Assembly (NCBI RefSeq): GCF_003860345.1
Contig: NZ_CP034179.1
Location: 1,488,001 to 1,552,000 of the forward strand
Source: Caenibius tardaugens NBRC 16725
GTDB taxonomy: Bacteria; Pseudomonadota; Alphaproteobacteria; Sphingomonadales; Sphingomonadaceae
DNA length: 64,000 nt
Reading direction: 5' to 3'
Made by a program: the position numbers and the translations under genes. The notes under the pieces are model-generated. The model saw only the letters and a program-made list of their open reading frames with translations. It was not told the origin of the DNA and made no database searches. Positions 8,478-17,402 of the stretch are shown one piece after another (within the stretch, counting starts at the first letter, position 1; each line of letters begins with the position of its first letter).

Positions 8478-9656
8478 TTGAACCGCGTGCAGCAAATCGG
8501 CGACGTTGCCGAAATCATGCTCGACTATGTCGAGAACAAGAAAACCCATCAGACCGACAAGGTGCTGCGCGTGCCGACCGGCAGCTATACCGATCCCGAC
8601 CAATGGCGCGCGGAAATGGAACTGGTGTTCAAGCGCGCGCCGCTGATGCTGGCGTTCACGTCCGAACTGCCCAACCCCGGCGACTACAAGGCCATGGAAG
8701 CGGTCGGCGTTCCCGTGCTGATCAACCGGGCAAAAGACGGCACCGTGCGCGCATTCCTGAACGTCTGTTCGCATCGCGGCGCGCCCGTGGCCAATGACGG
8801 CCATGGCAATTGCCCGCGCTTCACCTGCAAGTATCATGGATGGACATTCGGCCAGGATGGCAAGCTGATCGGTATCTCCGAAGCCTCCACCTTCGGCGAA
8901 GTGAACAAGGCGGAACGGGGGCTGCGCGAATTGCCGTGCGAAGAACGCGCAGGCATGATTTTCGTTTGCCTCACTCCCAATGCCCCGCTCGATCTCGACC
9001 GCCATTTCCGCGGTTTTCTGGACGATTTCGAAGCGCTCGATTTCGCGAACTGGACCTACATGGGATCGCGGGTGATCGAAGGCGCGAACTGGAAGATCGC
9101 GTTTGACGGCTATCTTGAAGGCTATCACTTCGCATCGCTGCATCCCACGACGATTAACCCGCGCACGCCATCGAACTGCGCCCATTACGAAGGCTTCGGC
9201 CCGAATATCCGCATCGGCTTCCCCCAGCGCCGCATTGCCGACGTGCTGAAAGACATCCCGCGCGAGGAATGGGGCAATCAGGAAAACAACGGATACGATT
9301 TCGTGCGTATCTTCTTCCCCAACGTCTCGTGCTTCGTCGCGCCGGAAATCACGCAAGTTGCGCAGCTCTTCCCCGGGCCGACGCCGGACAAGAACCGCAC
9401 CGTGCTGAATTACCTGCGGCGCGAACCGATCCGCGACGAGGAAGATCGTGCCAATGTCGAAGCCGCGATGAACTTCTTCCGCGACGTGACCTATACCGAA
9501 GACTACGTCATCGGGCTGGAAATCCAGCGCGGCCTCGAATCCGGCGCACATGACGATCTGGTGTTCGGCAAGAACGAACGCGGTAACCAGTACTTCCACG
9601 AATGGCTGAACTGGTATCTGGAAGACGACATCTCCGCCCCTGAACCGGTGATGTAG
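8478..9656 (+). CDS. Rieske non-haem iron oxygenase, alpha subunit
   Basis: A 392-residue aromatic-ring-hydroxylating-type oxygenase. The Rieske ligands are C97/H99 (CSHRG) and C117/H120 (CKYHGW). The mononuclear iron site is H217 and H222 (EGYHFASLH) with D342 (EDYVIGLEIQRGL). These enzymes hydroxylate or demethylate aromatics and related substrates with electrons from a ferredoxin. The start is a TTG at 8478: GGAG ends 7 bases before it, and no in-frame ATG precedes the conserved region. A TIM-barrel gene follows after 22 bases. Substrate unknown. Confidence 0.92.
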   Translation: MNRVQQIGDVAEIMLDYVENKKTHQTDKVLRVPTGSYTDPDQWRAEMELVFKRAPLMLAFTSELPNPGDYKAMEAVGVPVLINRAKDGTVRAFLNVCSHRGAPVANDGHGNCPRFTCKYHGWTFGQDGKLIGISEASTFGEVNKAERGLRELPCEERAGMIFVCLTPNAPLDLDRHFRGFLDDFEALDFANWTYMGSRVIEGANWKIAFDGYLEGYHFASLHPTTINPRTPSNCAHYEGFGPNIRIGFPQRRIADVLKDIPREEWGNQENNGYDFVRIFFPNVSCFVAPEITQVAQLFPGPTPDKNRTVLNYLRREPIRDEEDRANVEAAMNFFRDVTYTEDYVIGLEIQRGLESGAHDDLVFGKNERGNQYFHEWLNWYLEDDISAPEPVM

Positions 9657-10842: not shown

Positions 10843-11277
10843 TCAATCGGCGAAAACAGTCCGGTATTCGCGGCGGGTGAACAGCCATCGCCCGTCGATC
10901 TTCTTCAGTTCATCGTCATAGCGCCCGGTCGCATGGACCCGCTTTCCGGTGAACGGATCGTCGTAGATTTCAATGGTGTAGGCGACCGCCGTGGCGGCAT
11001 TGCCATCGACCGCGATTTCGCCGGGCTGCATGAAATAGACCATCGGCCGCGTGCCGTTATCCAGGCCATAATGCTTGAGCGATTCAATCCATCCGGCAAG
11101 GATCGCCTCCTTGCCGGTATAGCCACCCAGATCGGGATATTCGGGCAGCGCCCAATAGGCATCCTCTGCCCAGATCGAACCCCAGATGGCTGGGTCTTTC
11201 GCCATGACGCCATGGGCATGGGTATCCATCAATTCGCGGATCGCCACACGATCCTCCAGCGGGCCGGTAAACGCCAT
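10843..11277 (-). CDS. SnoaL-like / NTF2-fold protein, partner of the split Rieske gene
   Basis: A 144-residue SnoaL-like protein, closely similar to the one at 324-752 (LEDRVAIRELMDTHAHGV, WAEDAYWALPEYPDLGGYTG). Its ATG shares one base with the stop of the Rieske gene upstream (TGATG), so it was translated with that oxygenase. It may act as a non-canonical beta-type partner or on the product; the sequence does not decide. The IS element upstream has probably reduced its transcription, since the shared promoter lies beyond the insertion. Confidence 0.8.
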   Translation of the reverse strand: MAFTGPLEDRVAIRELMDTHAHGVMAKDPAIWGSIWAEDAYWALPEYPDLGGYTGKEAILAGWIESLKHYGLDNGTRPMVYFMQPGEIAVDGNAATAVAYTIEIYDDPFTGKRVHATGRYDDELKKIDGRWLFTRREYRTVFAD

Positions 11278-12494
11278 CAGGGCTTCCTTCCTTCGAGCCA
11301 GTCGTTGAGCACTTCATGGAAGAACCGCACGCGCGTTTCCTGCCCGGTCAGATAGGCATCCTGATAGCCGCGCGAATGCATCCCGGCCTGCATGCCTTCT
11401 GCCAGTTCCATATCCTGATAGACGATCTGCCCGGCCAGTTCGGGGATGCCCCGCCCCGCATCGAAATCGCGCTGTTCGCAATAGTCCGCCTCGCGCAGTG
11501 GCCGGGGACCAGCCATCACCGATTCCACGACCTCCTGCCCTTCGACCGGGAACGCCATGCACCACAGGTCGAAATAGCATTTCTCCGGATCATCCGGATG
11601 CGGTTCGCTGCGGAAAAACACCAGGTTGTCGGGCAGGAAACTGATGGTGACATTCGGGAAGATCACCGTATGCGGGCTGTCGGTGATTTCCTCGTCATCC
11701 ATGTGTTCGTAATGGACATAGCCGCGCTCCTTCCACAGGCGGCGCTTGGCGGCCTTGAGATCGAGCCAGCCCTGCATCGCCAGATCTTCGTACGAAGCAT
11801 AGCTTTCGGGATCGATATCCCATTGCTGCAGGATCAGCTTGAAGGGATGGGGCATGGTCTCCGGTAGGCGATCGGACAGCGACGGGCGCATCGGCTGCAC
11901 AGTGCGACCATGGCCCTTCGGCCACATTTCGTGCCGGGCGGTATCCACATCCTGATCGATCCACGGCGGCACTTGCGGGTGTGCCGTCCGGGTGTGGTAG
12001 CTTTCCGAGAAATTGTCCGTCACGAACTTCCAGTTCGCGTTGAGCGCGATGCGGTACCATGCCACGCGCACGGCCGTATCCATCGGATAGTTCTTGTAGA
12101 GCTGGGGCATAGGATCGAGATATTCGGCCAGCGACGGGCCTTCCTCCGCCATCGTGTACCACACGAACCCGCCCCAGATGTCGCAGCGCAGTTCCTTCAG
12201 TTTCACTTTCCCGCAAGGATCGCCCTGCGGGAAATCATGGCCATCCTGTGCGAATTTCACGAACCCATCGAGGCCATAACGCCAGCCATGATACGGGCAG
12301 CTGATCCCGTCGGATGACGAGCTTTCCTGGACCATGCGCATCCCGCGATGCGCGCAGGAATTGTAAAAGGCCTTCACAGAACCATCTTCCTGCAGGATGC
12401 AGATCACCGATTCCTTCAGGAAATTGTGCACCAGATAATCGCCCGGATCGATCAGTTCGGCCGTTCGCCCGGCGATGTGCCAGATCTTCGTCCA
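11277..12494 (-). pseudogene. Rieske oxygenase alpha subunit, 3' part (interrupted by IS)
   Basis: Codons from W43 onward of a Rieske oxygenase whose first 42 to 44 codons lie beyond the IS at 13893-14024. Rieske ligands (CAHRG, CPYHGW), the iron site (SESYHTRTAH) and a late YQDMELAEGMQ are intact. Rejoined, the gene would code for about 447 residues, close to the 440-residue paralogue at 16080. The frame is open into the IS to a GTG at 12563, adding 23 residues from the element's end, so a chimeric protein with an intact Rieske domain is conceivable. No ribosome site is evident for that start. Confidence 0.88.
12489..12494. repeat. CGTCCA at left IS junction
   Basis: The hexamer CGTCCA is present at both junctions of the element (here and 13893-13898) and must be counted once to rebuild the Rieske reading frame (W43-T44). 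It may be a core shared between element and target rather than a target duplication, since IS110-family elements usually make none. Confidence 0.7.
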
Positions 12495-12506
12495 GAGGTG
12501 TTGGGT

Positions 12507-12518
12507 TGGACGGCTCCC
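12507..12518 (+). repeat. Left subterminal inverted repeat of the IS
   Basis: TGGACGGCTCCC, exact inverse of 13887-13898, lying 12 bp inside the left junction. Subterminal repeats mark the IS1111 subgroup. Confidence 0.85.
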
Positions 12519-12578
12519 AACGGCATCGCGATGTGCCAAAGGTGATGTCGTTGTAGGACTCACACGAGGGAGCCGCCC

Positions 12579-13619
12579 ATGGAACAGATTACGCGTATAG
12601 GTATGGACACGTCAAAGAACGTTTTTCAGCTGCATGGCGTCGATGCAGCTGAAAAACCGGTCCTGCGCAAGAAGCTGACACGCCGGGAAATGATCCGATT
12701 TTTCGAGAAGCTGCCGCCGACCGATGTCGCCATCGAGGCCTGCGGCAGCGCGCATCACTGGGCGCGTCTCCTCGGCTCGTTCGGCCATGAGGTAAAGTTG
12801 ATTGCCCCGCAGTTGGCGAAGCCATACGTCAAGCGCGGCAAGAACGATGCCGCAGATGCTGAAGCCCTATGCGAGGCGATGAGCCGCCCGACGATGCGGT
12901 TCGTGCCGGTGAAGAGCACTGACCAGCAGGCGGCGCTTATGCTGGTGGGCATGCGCACCAGGCTCATCAAGAAGCGCACCCAGCTTGCCAACGCGATCCG
13001 GGGCTTCGCTGCGGAATTCGGGATCGCCGCAGCGAGGGGCATGTGCCGGATCGAACCCCTGCTAGAGCGCATAGCGACAGATGAGACCATCCCCGAACTT
13101 GCGCGCGAACTGTTCGCATTTCACGGGCAGGAATATGCGCAACTTCTGCGCGAGATCAATCTGGTCGAGGCCAAAGTTATGGAATGGCATCGCGCTGACG
13201 AATGTAGCCAGCGGCTCGCGAAAATCCCAGGCATCGGTCCGATCGGCGCATCCCTGCTGATGATGAAGGCGCCAGACCCGCGCATGTTCAAGTCCGGGCG
13301 AGACTTTGCCGCCTGGATCGGTTTGACGCCCAGAGATCATTCAACAGCCGGGAAGGTCAGGCTCGGGGGCATCACGCGAGCTGGCGATGAACTCTTACGG
13401 AGCACGCTTGTGGTCGGAGCAACCGCCGTCGTTCAGCATGTCCGTCGTACCGGAGGCAGGAACGCCTCGACTTGGCTTCTGGGGTTGCTCGAACGCAAGA
13501 AGCCCAAGCTCGTTGCGGTTGCGTTAGCCAACAAGGTCGCGCGCATCGCCTGGAAGCTGATGGTGAGCGGCGAGCAATATCGAAGGGCCGACCTGCCAGC
13601 AGCGGCAGCCGTGGCGTAA
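12579..13619 (+). CDS. IS110-family transposase (DEDD recombinase)
   Basis: A 346-residue intact transposase. The N-terminal RuvC-like DEDD domain shows GMDTSKN (D), AIEACGSAHHWARLL (E) and KRGKNDAADAEAL (two D). The C-terminal Transposase_20 domain has IPGIGPIGASLL, the FAAWIGLTPRDHSTAGK stretch holding a conserved serine, and GGITRAGDELLRSTLV. This family excises a circular intermediate and is directed to target sites by an element-encoded RNA. The ATG at 12579 has GAGGGA ahead. No frameshift or stop is seen, so the element should be active. Confidence 0.95.
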   Translation: MEQITRIGMDTSKNVFQLHGVDAAEKPVLRKKLTRREMIRFFEKLPPTDVAIEACGSAHHWARLLGSFGHEVKLIAPQLAKPYVKRGKNDAADAEALCEAMSRPTMRFVPVKSTDQQAALMLVGMRTRLIKKRTQLANAIRGFAAEFGIAAARGMCRIEPLLERIATDETIPELARELFAFHGQEYAQLLREINLVEAKVMEWHRADECSQRLAKIPGIGPIGASLLMMKAPDPRMFKSGRDFAAWIGLTPRDHSTAGKVRLGGITRAGDELLRSTLVVGATAVVQHVRRTGGRNASTWLLGLLERKKPKLVAVALANKVARIAWKLMVSGEQYRRADLPAAAAVA

Positions 13620-13620
13620 A

Positions 13621-13892
13621 AGATTGGCCAGACACGATGAGCAACTACTCAACGCTATCGTGCTGAGCTGATGCCGGATCTTGCAAGAAAAGAGCAGATG
13701 GTGCGATCGATCGATCCAAGGCGTGTGGCACTCCATCGGGACCAATGGCCCTCCGAGGCCGCTGAGGTGTTAGGAACTCACGCTGCGGAAACCATCTTGG
13801 CCAGCGATCACATGCGGTCGCGCCCAAAGGCCGGACATATGGACGCAAGCGATACGATCAAATCTTTCCGCTCAGCCCTTGCAAGAGGGAGC
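13621..13892 (+). ncRNA. Candidate guide (seeker/bridge) RNA region of the IS
   Basis: This is the 3' non-coding tail of the element, where IS1111-type elements encode their guide RNA (established for the group). Two short matches support it. GAGGTGTT at 13764-13771 equals the first eight bases of the element's left end (12495-12502), and two further G's match after one mismatch. GGGACCA at 13738-13744 equals the minus strand of the target just right of the insertion (13903-13909). A GGCC-CTCCGA-GGCC hairpin (13747-13760) lies between them. Exact RNA ends were not determined. Confidence 0.5.
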
Positions 13893-13898
13893 CGTCCA
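13887..13898 (-). repeat. Right inverted repeat of the IS
   Basis: GGGAGCCGTCCA, exact inverse of 12507-12518. Its last six bases are the CGTCCA shared with the target. Confidence 0.85.
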
Positions 13899-14024
13899 CA
13901 TATGGTCCCATTCCTTCTGCGCGAAATCCTGCGAATAGTAGCGATCGCCGGTGATCGCATCGCCGCGAAGATTTGCCGAATCGCGGCCCGAAATCGCGGG
14001 CGGCACGGCGGCAAGCTCAGTCAT
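13893..14024 (-). pseudogene. Rieske oxygenase alpha subunit, 5' part (interrupted by IS)
   Basis: Codons 1-44 of the split Rieske gene. It starts at ATG 14024 with GGAGAGGA upstream. The peptide includes RGDAITGDRYYSQDFAQKEW followed by DHMWT. It aligns without gaps to RGDVITADRYISREWMEQET of the paralogue at 16080, and continues into TKIWHIAG on the other side of the element. The natural promoter must lie in the gap toward the P450 gene, so transcription of the remainder now has to cross the IS. Confidence 0.85.
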
Positions 14025-16079: not shown

Positions 16080-17402
16080 GTGAATGCCGAAACCAATGTG
16101 TCCCGTTACTCCAAGGATTTCGACCTTCCCGTACGCGGGGATGTGATCACAGCCGATCGTTATATCAGCCGCGAATGGATGGAGCAGGAAACCCGGAAGC
16201 TCTGGCCCAAGGTCTGGCATCTGGGCGGCATGCTGGCCGAACTGGAAGAACCGGGCGACATCATCCGGCATAATTTCGGCAAGGAATCGATCATCATGGT
16301 GCGGCAGGACGACGGGTCCATCCGCGCGTTCTACAATACCTGTCCGCACCGTGGGAACCGGCTGATCCTCGGCGATGTCGCCAGTGTCGACCAGATCACC
16401 TGCGGCTATCACAGCTGGACGTTCGACATCGACGGCACGCTTGCCAAAGTGCAGGACCCCGACGATTTCGCCGGTGGCAATCCCTGCGGCAAGGTCCATC
16501 TGGCGGAAGTCCGCTGCGAAACCTGGGGGCCGTTCGTGTTCTGGTGCATGGACGACGATGTTGCCCCGCTGCGCGAATGGATGGCGCCGCTGCCGGATCG
16601 GCTGGCCGCCTATGGCCTGGAAAACTGGGTGCGCGTGCTGCACGTATCGGCGGACTGCAACTTCAACTGGAAGATCCTGCGCGATAATTTCAACGAAAGT
16701 TACCACCTGCCCACGATCCATCCCGAACTGGCGATGTTCATCAATGACGGGTTGCCCACGACGCTGTTCGAAATGTACCCGTCAGGCCACAATTCCATGT
16801 GGATGATCGGCCATCAGGCCACCACCCGCACCGATTATGAAAGTGGCGATGTCCCCGCAGGCCTCGCCGAAGCGGCGGTGGCGTGGGGTATCGATCCGGC
16901 CGCATACAAGGGCCGCACCGGGGAAATCCGTCAGGCGGTGATCGATGCGAAGCGACGTCTCGGGGCGGAACGCGGCTATGCCAACTATGCGGATATGAGC
17001 GACCAGCAACTGGTCGACTATTTCCACTGCACGCTGTTCCCCAACCTGACGATCACCATGTCGCCCGAACAGTGCCAGATTCTCCGCACCGAACCGCACC
17101 CGACCGACCCGGAAAAGTGCATTTTCCAGCACTGGTGCCTCTATCCCCCGGTTCCTGGCATGACCGAAGTCTATACCCCGGTGGGCATGGCCCCCTTGCA
17201 GCATGACGCGATCAGCAGCCATTCGGTTTATGGTGACGGTGTATCACTGGGCTTTGTGGCGGATCAGGATCTGTCGATCGGCACCTCCCAACAACAGGGC
17301 CTCAATTCGCGCGGTTTCAAAGGCTGCATCCTGCCGGGTCAGGAAAAGCGTGTGCAGCGGTTCCACGAACTGCTCAACGATATGATTGGCGGGCCCGCCT
17401 GA
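16080..17402 (+). CDS. Rieske non-haem iron oxygenase, alpha subunit
   Basis: A 440-residue oxygenase. The Rieske ligands are C88/H90 (CPHRG) and C108/H111 (CGYHSW, where CPYHGW is commoner). The iron site is H209 and H214 (NESYHLPTIH) with D397 (VADQDLSIG). It is a paralogue of the IS-split enzyme at 11277-14024, sharing the RGD-IT-DRY N terminus. The start is a GTG with GGGAGA about 9 bases ahead; no ATG fits better. It is followed with a 1-base overlap by a VOC protein and then a SnoaL-like gene, forming a small oxygenase unit. Confidence 0.93.
   Translation: MNAETNVSRYSKDFDLPVRGDVITADRYISREWMEQETRKLWPKVWHLGGMLAELEEPGDIIRHNFGKESIIMVRQDDGSIRAFYNTCPHRGNRLILGDVASVDQITCGYHSWTFDIDGTLAKVQDPDDFAGGNPCGKVHLAEVRCETWGPFVFWCMDDDVAPLREWMAPLPDRLAAYGLENWVRVLHVSADCNFNWKILRDNFNESYHLPTIHPELAMFINDGLPTTLFEMYPSGHNSMWMIGHQATTRTDYESGDVPAGLAEAAVAWGIDPAAYKGRTGEIRQAVIDAKRRLGAERGYANYADMSDQQLVDYFHCTLFPNLTITMSPEQCQILRTEPHPTDPEKCIFQHWCLYPPVPGMTEVYTPVGMAPLQHDAISSHSVYGDGVSLGFVADQDLSIGTSQQQGLNSRGFKGCILPGQEKRVQRFHELLNDMIGGPA

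What the first reader, a model, noticed from the sequence alone, without database searches (positions are those of the whole stretch)
11277..14024. Rieske oxygenase gene cleanly split by an IS1111-like element
The two coding parts (13893-14024 and 11277-12494) join in frame once the element and one copy of CGTCCA are removed. The rebuilt protein aligns without gaps to the paralogue at 16080 across the junction (EWDHMW then TKIWHIAG). No other lesion exists, so the loss looks recent and reversible. It may distinguish this strain from relatives able to use the substrate.
Basis: seen in the sequence. Interest (0 to 1): 0.75.

Follow-up and report, generated by a model that had tools for sequence, protein, structure and literature searches.

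The report
RNA-guided mobile element splits oxygenase gene
A small mobile DNA element that seems to find its landing site with its own guide RNA has landed inside an otherwise undamaged oxygenase gene of a steroid-degrading bacterium; it is a clear example of a known kind of event, with the exact join a few bases away from where it was first placed.

Summary
Confirmed with a correction. The orthologue is contiguous and stop-free in 82 of 85 loci examined, among them a same-genus genome with largely conserved gene order. No other lesion is present, and there is no sign of relaxed selection, so the insertion looks recent.

The junction in the finding is off by a few bases. The CGTCCA repeat is a coincidence: its right copy is part of the element's subterminal inverted repeat. 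A second, identical copy and 17 further copies put the element at 12499-13902, inserted at GAGG|TGGTCCC. The rebuilt motif is EWDHLW, not EWDHMW; both joins restore the frame.

The non-coding end downstream of the transposase carries a covarying RNA whose two guide segments match this element's flanks, and which in relatives change together with theirs, as published for IS1111 'seekRNA'. 'Reversible' is unproven: empty sites were not detected for ISEc11. Substrate unknown. New member of a known kind.

The parts
12499..13902 (+). IS1111-group insertion sequence, 1404 bp (starts TGTTGGG, ends CCACATA)
   Evidence: boundaries from the second identical copy, from 19 copies in register and from the 7-bp/3-bp extension rule
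12579..13619 (+). IS110-family DEDD transposase/recombinase, 346 aa
12506..12518 (+). left subterminal inverted repeat (TTGGACGGCTCCC; its first base does not match)
13887..13899 (+). right subterminal inverted repeat GGGAGCCGTCCAC; contains the right 'CGTCCA' of the finding
13694..13801 (+). predicted seekRNA (guide RNA) core in the non-coding region downstream of the transposase
   Evidence: covarying consensus structure of 15 elements; model also finds it beside elements not used to build it
13738..13744 (+). guide segment GGGACCA, complementary to the top strand of the right half of the target (TGGTCCC)
13764..13769 (+). guide segment GAGGTG, identical to the top strand of the left half of the target plus core
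13835..13841 (+). ACATATG in the non-coding region, same as the element's own right end: possible donor-recognising segment (inference, by eye)
12495..12498 (+). left target flank GAGG (gene sequence)
13903..13909 (+). right target flank TGGTCCC (gene sequence)
13903..14024 (-). 5' part of the split Rieske oxygenase alpha-subunit gene (codons 1-40 and two bases of codon 41)
11277..12498 (-). 3' part of the split Rieske oxygenase gene (Rieske and catalytic domains)
10843..11277 (-). SnoaL-like gene directly downstream; its start codon shares one base with the oxygenase stop; possible polar effect

Best explanation
A 1404-bp IS1111-group element inserted recently, in one step and without target duplication, into a Rieske oxygenase alpha-subunit gene at GAGG|TGGTCCC (codons of the conserved motif EWDHLW). 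Shown from sequence: anatomy, boundaries, a second copy at a like target, guide segments that match both target halves and change with the target in relatives, a covarying RNA fold, contiguous orthologues. Inferred: the transposase with its seekRNA chose this site through those guides (the target matches them over 11 bases, against 16 at the second copy's site, which may be the preferred one). Inferred: the oxygenase is inactive, since residues 1-40 are separated from the rest, and the downstream SnoaL-like gene is probably expressed less.
For: Transposase family. Second copy identical from 12495 to 13909, left flank different beyond GAGG. Nineteen copies in register: left end TG(T/A)TG in 19 of 19; right end CCACATA followed by TG in 15 of 19 (L192 has GG and L194 AG in place of TG; L195 CCACACA; L003 CCACAGA), with unlike flanks. 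Guides against flanks: both match by 3 or more bases beyond the TG core in 13 of 16 distinct elements, against 25 of 240 swapped pairs; 5 or more: top guide 8 of 16 against 3 of 240, bottom guide 9 of 16 against 7 of 240. RNA fold: 97.9% of 480 cells paired, 10 pairs with changes on both sides, neither reached in 500 shuffles. Loci not used to build the model: hits in 10 of 12, three of them identical copies, worst E 1e-5. In the genome the model hits 7 places; 6 of the 7 transposase matches have one beside them, two of these being the window's element and its twin. Orthologue contiguous and stop-free in 82 of 85 loci. Gene order largely kept in G003. No relaxed selection. The element's right end joined to this target is in 1 of 397 family genomes, this one.
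Against: Guide test: L056, L003 and L194 fail it; for L148 and L192 the top-guide match, and for L187 the first bottom-guide match, is not at the usual place; short matches are common in swapped pairs too (3 or more: top 64, bottom 91 of 240). One covariation measure, the number of pair types, is reached by 50 of 500 shuffles, and the structure was derived from the same sequences. The window's RNA folded alone is no better than shuffles (z 1.44). No Rfam family matches. L007 and L037 gave no model hit. The exact ancestral target is not seen in the nearest relative: G003 has GGGATCGCCTC, 2 mismatches; 1 of 81 loci with the motif has it exactly and 13 have one mismatch. Transposition, RNA expression and loss of enzyme activity were not tested.
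Confidence: 0.93

Rival explanations
1. One reading: the element is bounded by a duplicated CGTCCA and the gene read EWDHMW before insertion.
For: CGTCCA is on both sides in the same register and the join is in frame. EWDHMW-like forms are natural: of 81 loci with the motif 29 have M there, 51 L and 1 V, and 5 have exactly GGGACCATATG.
Against: CCACATA is the right end of most copies compared, whose targets differ, so those bases belong to the element; the second copy lacks CGTCCA on the left but shares GAGG and TGGTCCC; the guides match GAGG and TGGTCCC; the G003 orthologue has CCTC.
Confidence: 0.03
2. Reversible switch: the element leaves precisely in part of the population and the gene works again.
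For: Both target halves are intact, the transposase ORF is full length, and IS110-family elements are described as excising scarlessly (passages of PMC11208160). Precise excision of IS492 I know from recall and from the title of a reference printed.
Against: For ISEc11, an IS1111 member, the empty target was not detected when circles formed. No reads were available here.
Confidence: 0.1
3. The gene still works from a start inside the element: an ORF of 428 aa starts at GTG 12563 and runs in frame into the Rieske and catalytic domains, with the first 40 residues replaced by 21 others.
For: The frame is open through the element's left end; both domains are matched in this ORF.
Against: No purine-rich ribosome site is seen by eye in the 27 bases before that GTG; the native promoter is presumably on the far side of the element (inference); the replaced stretch is kept in most orthologues.
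Confidence: 0.07

Closest known systems
IS1111 group with seekRNA (ISEc11, ISKpn4, ISPa11; PMC11187229: abstract, introduction and five results sections seen)
   Same: DEDD transposase of 330-350 aa, subterminal inverted repeats, 7-bp and 3-bp extensions, long non-coding end downstream of the transposase, guide segments for both target strands in the same order, no target duplication
   Different: target GAGG|TGGTCCC; movement of this element not tested
Element annotated 'ISShsp1 family' on Sphingobium xenophagum plasmid pSH1 (L145; label from its annotation)
   Same: 78.2% identical over the whole element, same right end
   Different: guides and target differ together
IS110 element on Novosphingobium sp. 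MBES04 plasmid (L144)
   Same: 83.1% identical, same left target GAGG
   Different: right target TGGTGC with guide GCACCA
Rieske oxygenase alpha subunits with solved structure, e.g. carnitine monooxygenase (6y9c), 3-phenylpropionate dioxygenase (8k0a)
   Same: Rieske and ring-hydroxylating domains
   Different: best solved relative E 2.2e-24 over residues 2-196 of the 405-residue G003 stretch searched; below the cut-offs of the 6 NCBIfam equivalogs that matched

Membership tests
IS1111 group (IS110 family) | N-terminal DEDD domain and C-terminal PF02371 domain | tested here: met
IS1111 group (IS110 family) | transposase 330-350 aa with GL-P----S(T)G motif, occasionally TA | tested here: met
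   346 aa; GLTPRDHSTAG, the TA form, read by eye in the translation; rule
IS1111 group (IS110 family) | subterminal inverted repeats, usually 11-13 bp | tested here: met
   12 of 13 bases pair; rule
IS1111 group (IS110 family) | 7-bp left and 3-bp right extension | tested here: met
   TGTTGGG and ATA with ends 12499 and 13902; rule
IS1111 group (IS110 family) | longer non-coding end downstream of the transposase | tested here: met
   283 nt downstream, 80 nt upstream (from the coordinates)
IS1111 group (IS110 family) | guide for the top strand precedes guide for the bottom strand, the two overlapping in the target | tested here: met
   rule
IS1111 group (IS110 family) | circular intermediate and movement to the target | not testable with these tools
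   needs the strain
Rieske non-haem iron oxygenase alpha subunit | Rieske [2Fe-2S] and ring-hydroxylating catalytic domains | tested here: met
   PF00355 and PF00848 above cut-off in 11277-12563
Rieske non-haem iron oxygenase alpha subunit | oxygenase activity on a substrate | not testable with these tools
   no NCBIfam equivalog above its cut-off
Insertion with target duplication | duplicated target bases at both ends | tested here: not met
   CGTCCA not shared by the second copy's left flank; right CGTCCA is in the inverted repeat

The most novel reading that the evidence does not exclude
An RNA-guided, reversible catabolic switch: the seekRNA recombinase excises the element precisely in part of the population and restores the oxygenase, so that a steroid degrader carries the pathway step as a recoverable reserve.
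Probability: 0.07. Interest if true: 0.6.

Novelty: new member of a known kind. Interest (0 to 1): 0.3.

Why it matters
It is a worked case of how to place the ends of an IS1111 element: a shared short repeat misled the eye, while guide-flank co-variation and a second copy fix the join. It marks a gene of a model steroid-degrading strain that is probably dead in the sequenced stock, which matters when gene lists of that strain are used to infer its pathways. The set of relatives is an independent natural test of seekRNA targeting in alphaproteobacterial elements.

Tried and rejected
Rejected: CGTCCA as a duplication. Considered: that the guide aims at Rieske genes because GGGACCACCTC encodes their WDHLW. 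Rejected as a purpose: the second copy sits five codons before the end of another ORF, hydrophobic by eye; the two unoccupied exact targets in the genome (control 1) lie in ORFs that do not look like Rieske genes (by motif, recalled, they resemble carB and an rRNA methyltransferase); sites with up to one mismatch number 32 against 73 for the backward control. Considered: a rearrangement at the second copy's left flank; not needed, since with the ends used here its reading frame runs through the join and stops five codons on. An intact form of that second site was sought in 249 genomes; the one hit besides the genome itself (G223, 46% identical) I did not examine further. Led nowhere: Rfam; single-sequence RNA fold. 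Selection controls: two neighbouring Rieske genes and the SnoaL-like gene also show no significant difference between branches (58/33 against 46/25; 63/21 against 56/9, p 0.10; 23/9 against 17/11). In print: I found no report of this insertion, by the listings (20 of 25 shown; 5; 25 of 4,102 shown, none of them naming the species) and by searching 'transposase' and 'insertion sequence' within the main texts of PMC7793797, PMC12239570, PMC12882949 and PMC6895838 (none); supplements were not open to me, so this is not exhaustive. PMC6424214 was read but for the end of its reference list.

Slips: one search covered the wrong strand and was redone; the target tally was off by one base and was redone; the join of the second site dropped two bases and was redone. 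Rows dropped: L188, L189, L191 (ends not caught by my pattern); L002, L184, L185 counted as repeats of a target already held. The 16 are not wholly independent: window and L144 share the left target, L186 and L187 much of the right one. Relatives were chosen by me: 18 of the 60 rows listed (of 1,128 records), plus L056 and L003.

Full report
What is there. The window lies in a 4,358,096-base single-contig genome. That length equals the published one of Novosphingobium (now Caenibius) tardaugens NBRC 16725, CP034179 (PMC6424214), so I take it to be that strain (inference). On the plus strand 12579-13619 encodes an IS110-family transposase. On the minus strand, on either side, lie the two parts of a Rieske oxygenase alpha-subunit gene. 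Joined, they give 447 residues and one stop, at the end.

Is it a real split gene? Yes. In 82 of 85 orthologue loci the protein aligns in one piece, without stops, from residue 15 or before to residue 435 or after. Of the other three, L124 and L138 are cut by contig ends and L137 (Croceicoccus hydrothermalis) has its own internal deletion with a frameshift. The same-genus genome G003 keeps the gene whole, with most neighbours in the same order: TonB receptor, dehydrogenases, a first Rieske gene, isomerase-like, EthD-like, SnoaL-like, this gene, GFA-like, another Rieske gene, SnoaL-like, flavoprotein (the names are mine, from the translations, apart from those tested). The P450-like, the VOC-like and the last SDR gene of the window stretch have no counterpart in place there. 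In this genome no second copy of the gene was found: besides the gene itself two paralogues, 44% and 41% identical, with 18 of 27 candidates scored. Of three other genomes of the genus, only G003 had a match at E <= 1e-60.

Where exactly is the join? The genome holds a second copy of the element, identical from window 12495 to 13909. Identity runs past the right end proposed in the finding, by CATATGGTCCC, and on the left it ends with GAGG, without CGTCCA. I set these beside 17 further copies: 15 from plasmids of other alphaproteobacteria, one from a family member and one paralogous element of this genome. The right end reads CCACATA followed by TG in 15 of 19 (L192, L194, L195 and L003 deviate in one or two bases) and the left end begins TG(T/A)TG in 19 of 19, while the bases outside mostly differ from element to element. 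So CATA belongs to the element and GAGG to the gene. The element is then 12499-13902, with a 7-base and a 3-base extension outside the inverted repeats, as published for IS1111 members. With the same ends the second copy is also 1404 bases long. The repeated CGTCCA is a chance match of target to inverted repeat: 6 of 6 in the window, 1 to 4 of 6 in the other 18 copies. The gene read EWDHLW, not EWDHMW, before insertion. Both joins have the same register, hence the correct frame in the finding.

How did it get there? IS1111 elements find their target with a short RNA from the non-coding end (PMC11187229). Here that end carries GGGACCA (13738-13744), the complement of the right target half, followed by GAGGTG (13764-13769), the left half, in the order published for the group. 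In 16 distinct elements, guides match their own flanks better than flanks of others: both sides by 3 or more bases beyond the core in 13 of 16, against 25 of 240 swapped pairs; by 5 or more, top guide 8 of 16 against 3 of 240, bottom guide 9 of 16 against 7 of 240. L056, L003 and L194 fail; for L148 and L192 the top-guide match, and for L187 the first bottom-guide match, is not at the usual place. By eye L003 has a longer top-guide match that lacks the core. The two guides sit on the two sides of one internal loop of a consensus fold of 15 elements: 32 pairs, 10 with changes on both sides. Four of five covariation measures exceed all 500 shuffles; the fifth, the count of pair types, is reached by 50. 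The structure came from these same sequences, so a better test is elsewhere: a model of this RNA hits 10 of 12 loci not used to build it, three of them identical copies, and in this genome stands beside 6 of 7 transposase matches, plus once where no IS110 transposase is matched. The window sequence folded alone shows nothing unusual, and no Rfam family matched.

The second copy's site matches the guides over 16 bases, the oxygenase site over 11 (from the matches), so the oxygenase may be a secondary target. Exact unoccupied targets number two in the genome. The element's right end joined to this target occurs in 1 of 397 family genomes, this one. The insertion looks recent: both copies are identical, and synonymous and nonsynonymous changes are 61 and 21 on this branch, 63 and 23 on that of G003.

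Consequences. Residues 1-40 are cut off from the Rieske and catalytic domains, and the start codon of the SnoaL-like gene behind shares one base with the oxygenase stop, so both products are probably lost or lowered (inference). An ORF starting inside the element could give a protein with a foreign N-terminus, which I think unlikely. Reversal is possible in principle but not shown; the published test with ISEc11 did not detect empty sites. The substrate is unknown: the nearest solved structure by sequence is a carnitine monooxygenase at E 2.2e-24, and no NCBIfam equivalog reaches its cut-off.

Verdict. A correct and useful observation with a misplaced junction. It is an element of the IS1111 group doing what that group is known to do.

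Noticed in passing
L137 7902-9101 (Croceicoccus hydrothermalis): The same oxygenase gene has an independent internal deletion of roughly 46 codons with a frameshift, so the gene has been broken at least twice among the loci examined.
   Followed up: partly
G000:C1:852374-852530 (L203): A seekRNA-like match with no IS110 transposase match beside it, near ORFs that look (by eye) like IS3 and IS6 transposases: probably a remnant of an IS1111 element that kept its guide RNA.
   Followed up: partly
L003, L004, L005 (G000:C1 near 855 kb, 899 kb, 968 kb): Three copies of a second IS1111-type element, identical over about 1.4 kb, all at GACTGA-TGACAGCACC targets, with matching guide segments read by eye.
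   Followed up: partly
window 13835-13841; L003; L006: The non-coding region repeats the element's own right end (ACATATG here, ACAGATG in L003, ACAGAA in L006), as a donor-recognising segment would; read by eye, not counted, and L195 does not fit.
   Followed up: partly
window 8478-9656, 11277-14024, 16080-17402: Three Rieske alpha-subunit genes within 9 kb, with P450-like, SnoaL-like, SDR and TonB-receptor genes; a cluster with partly kept order in the sphingomonad loci compared; pathway unknown.
   Followed up: partly
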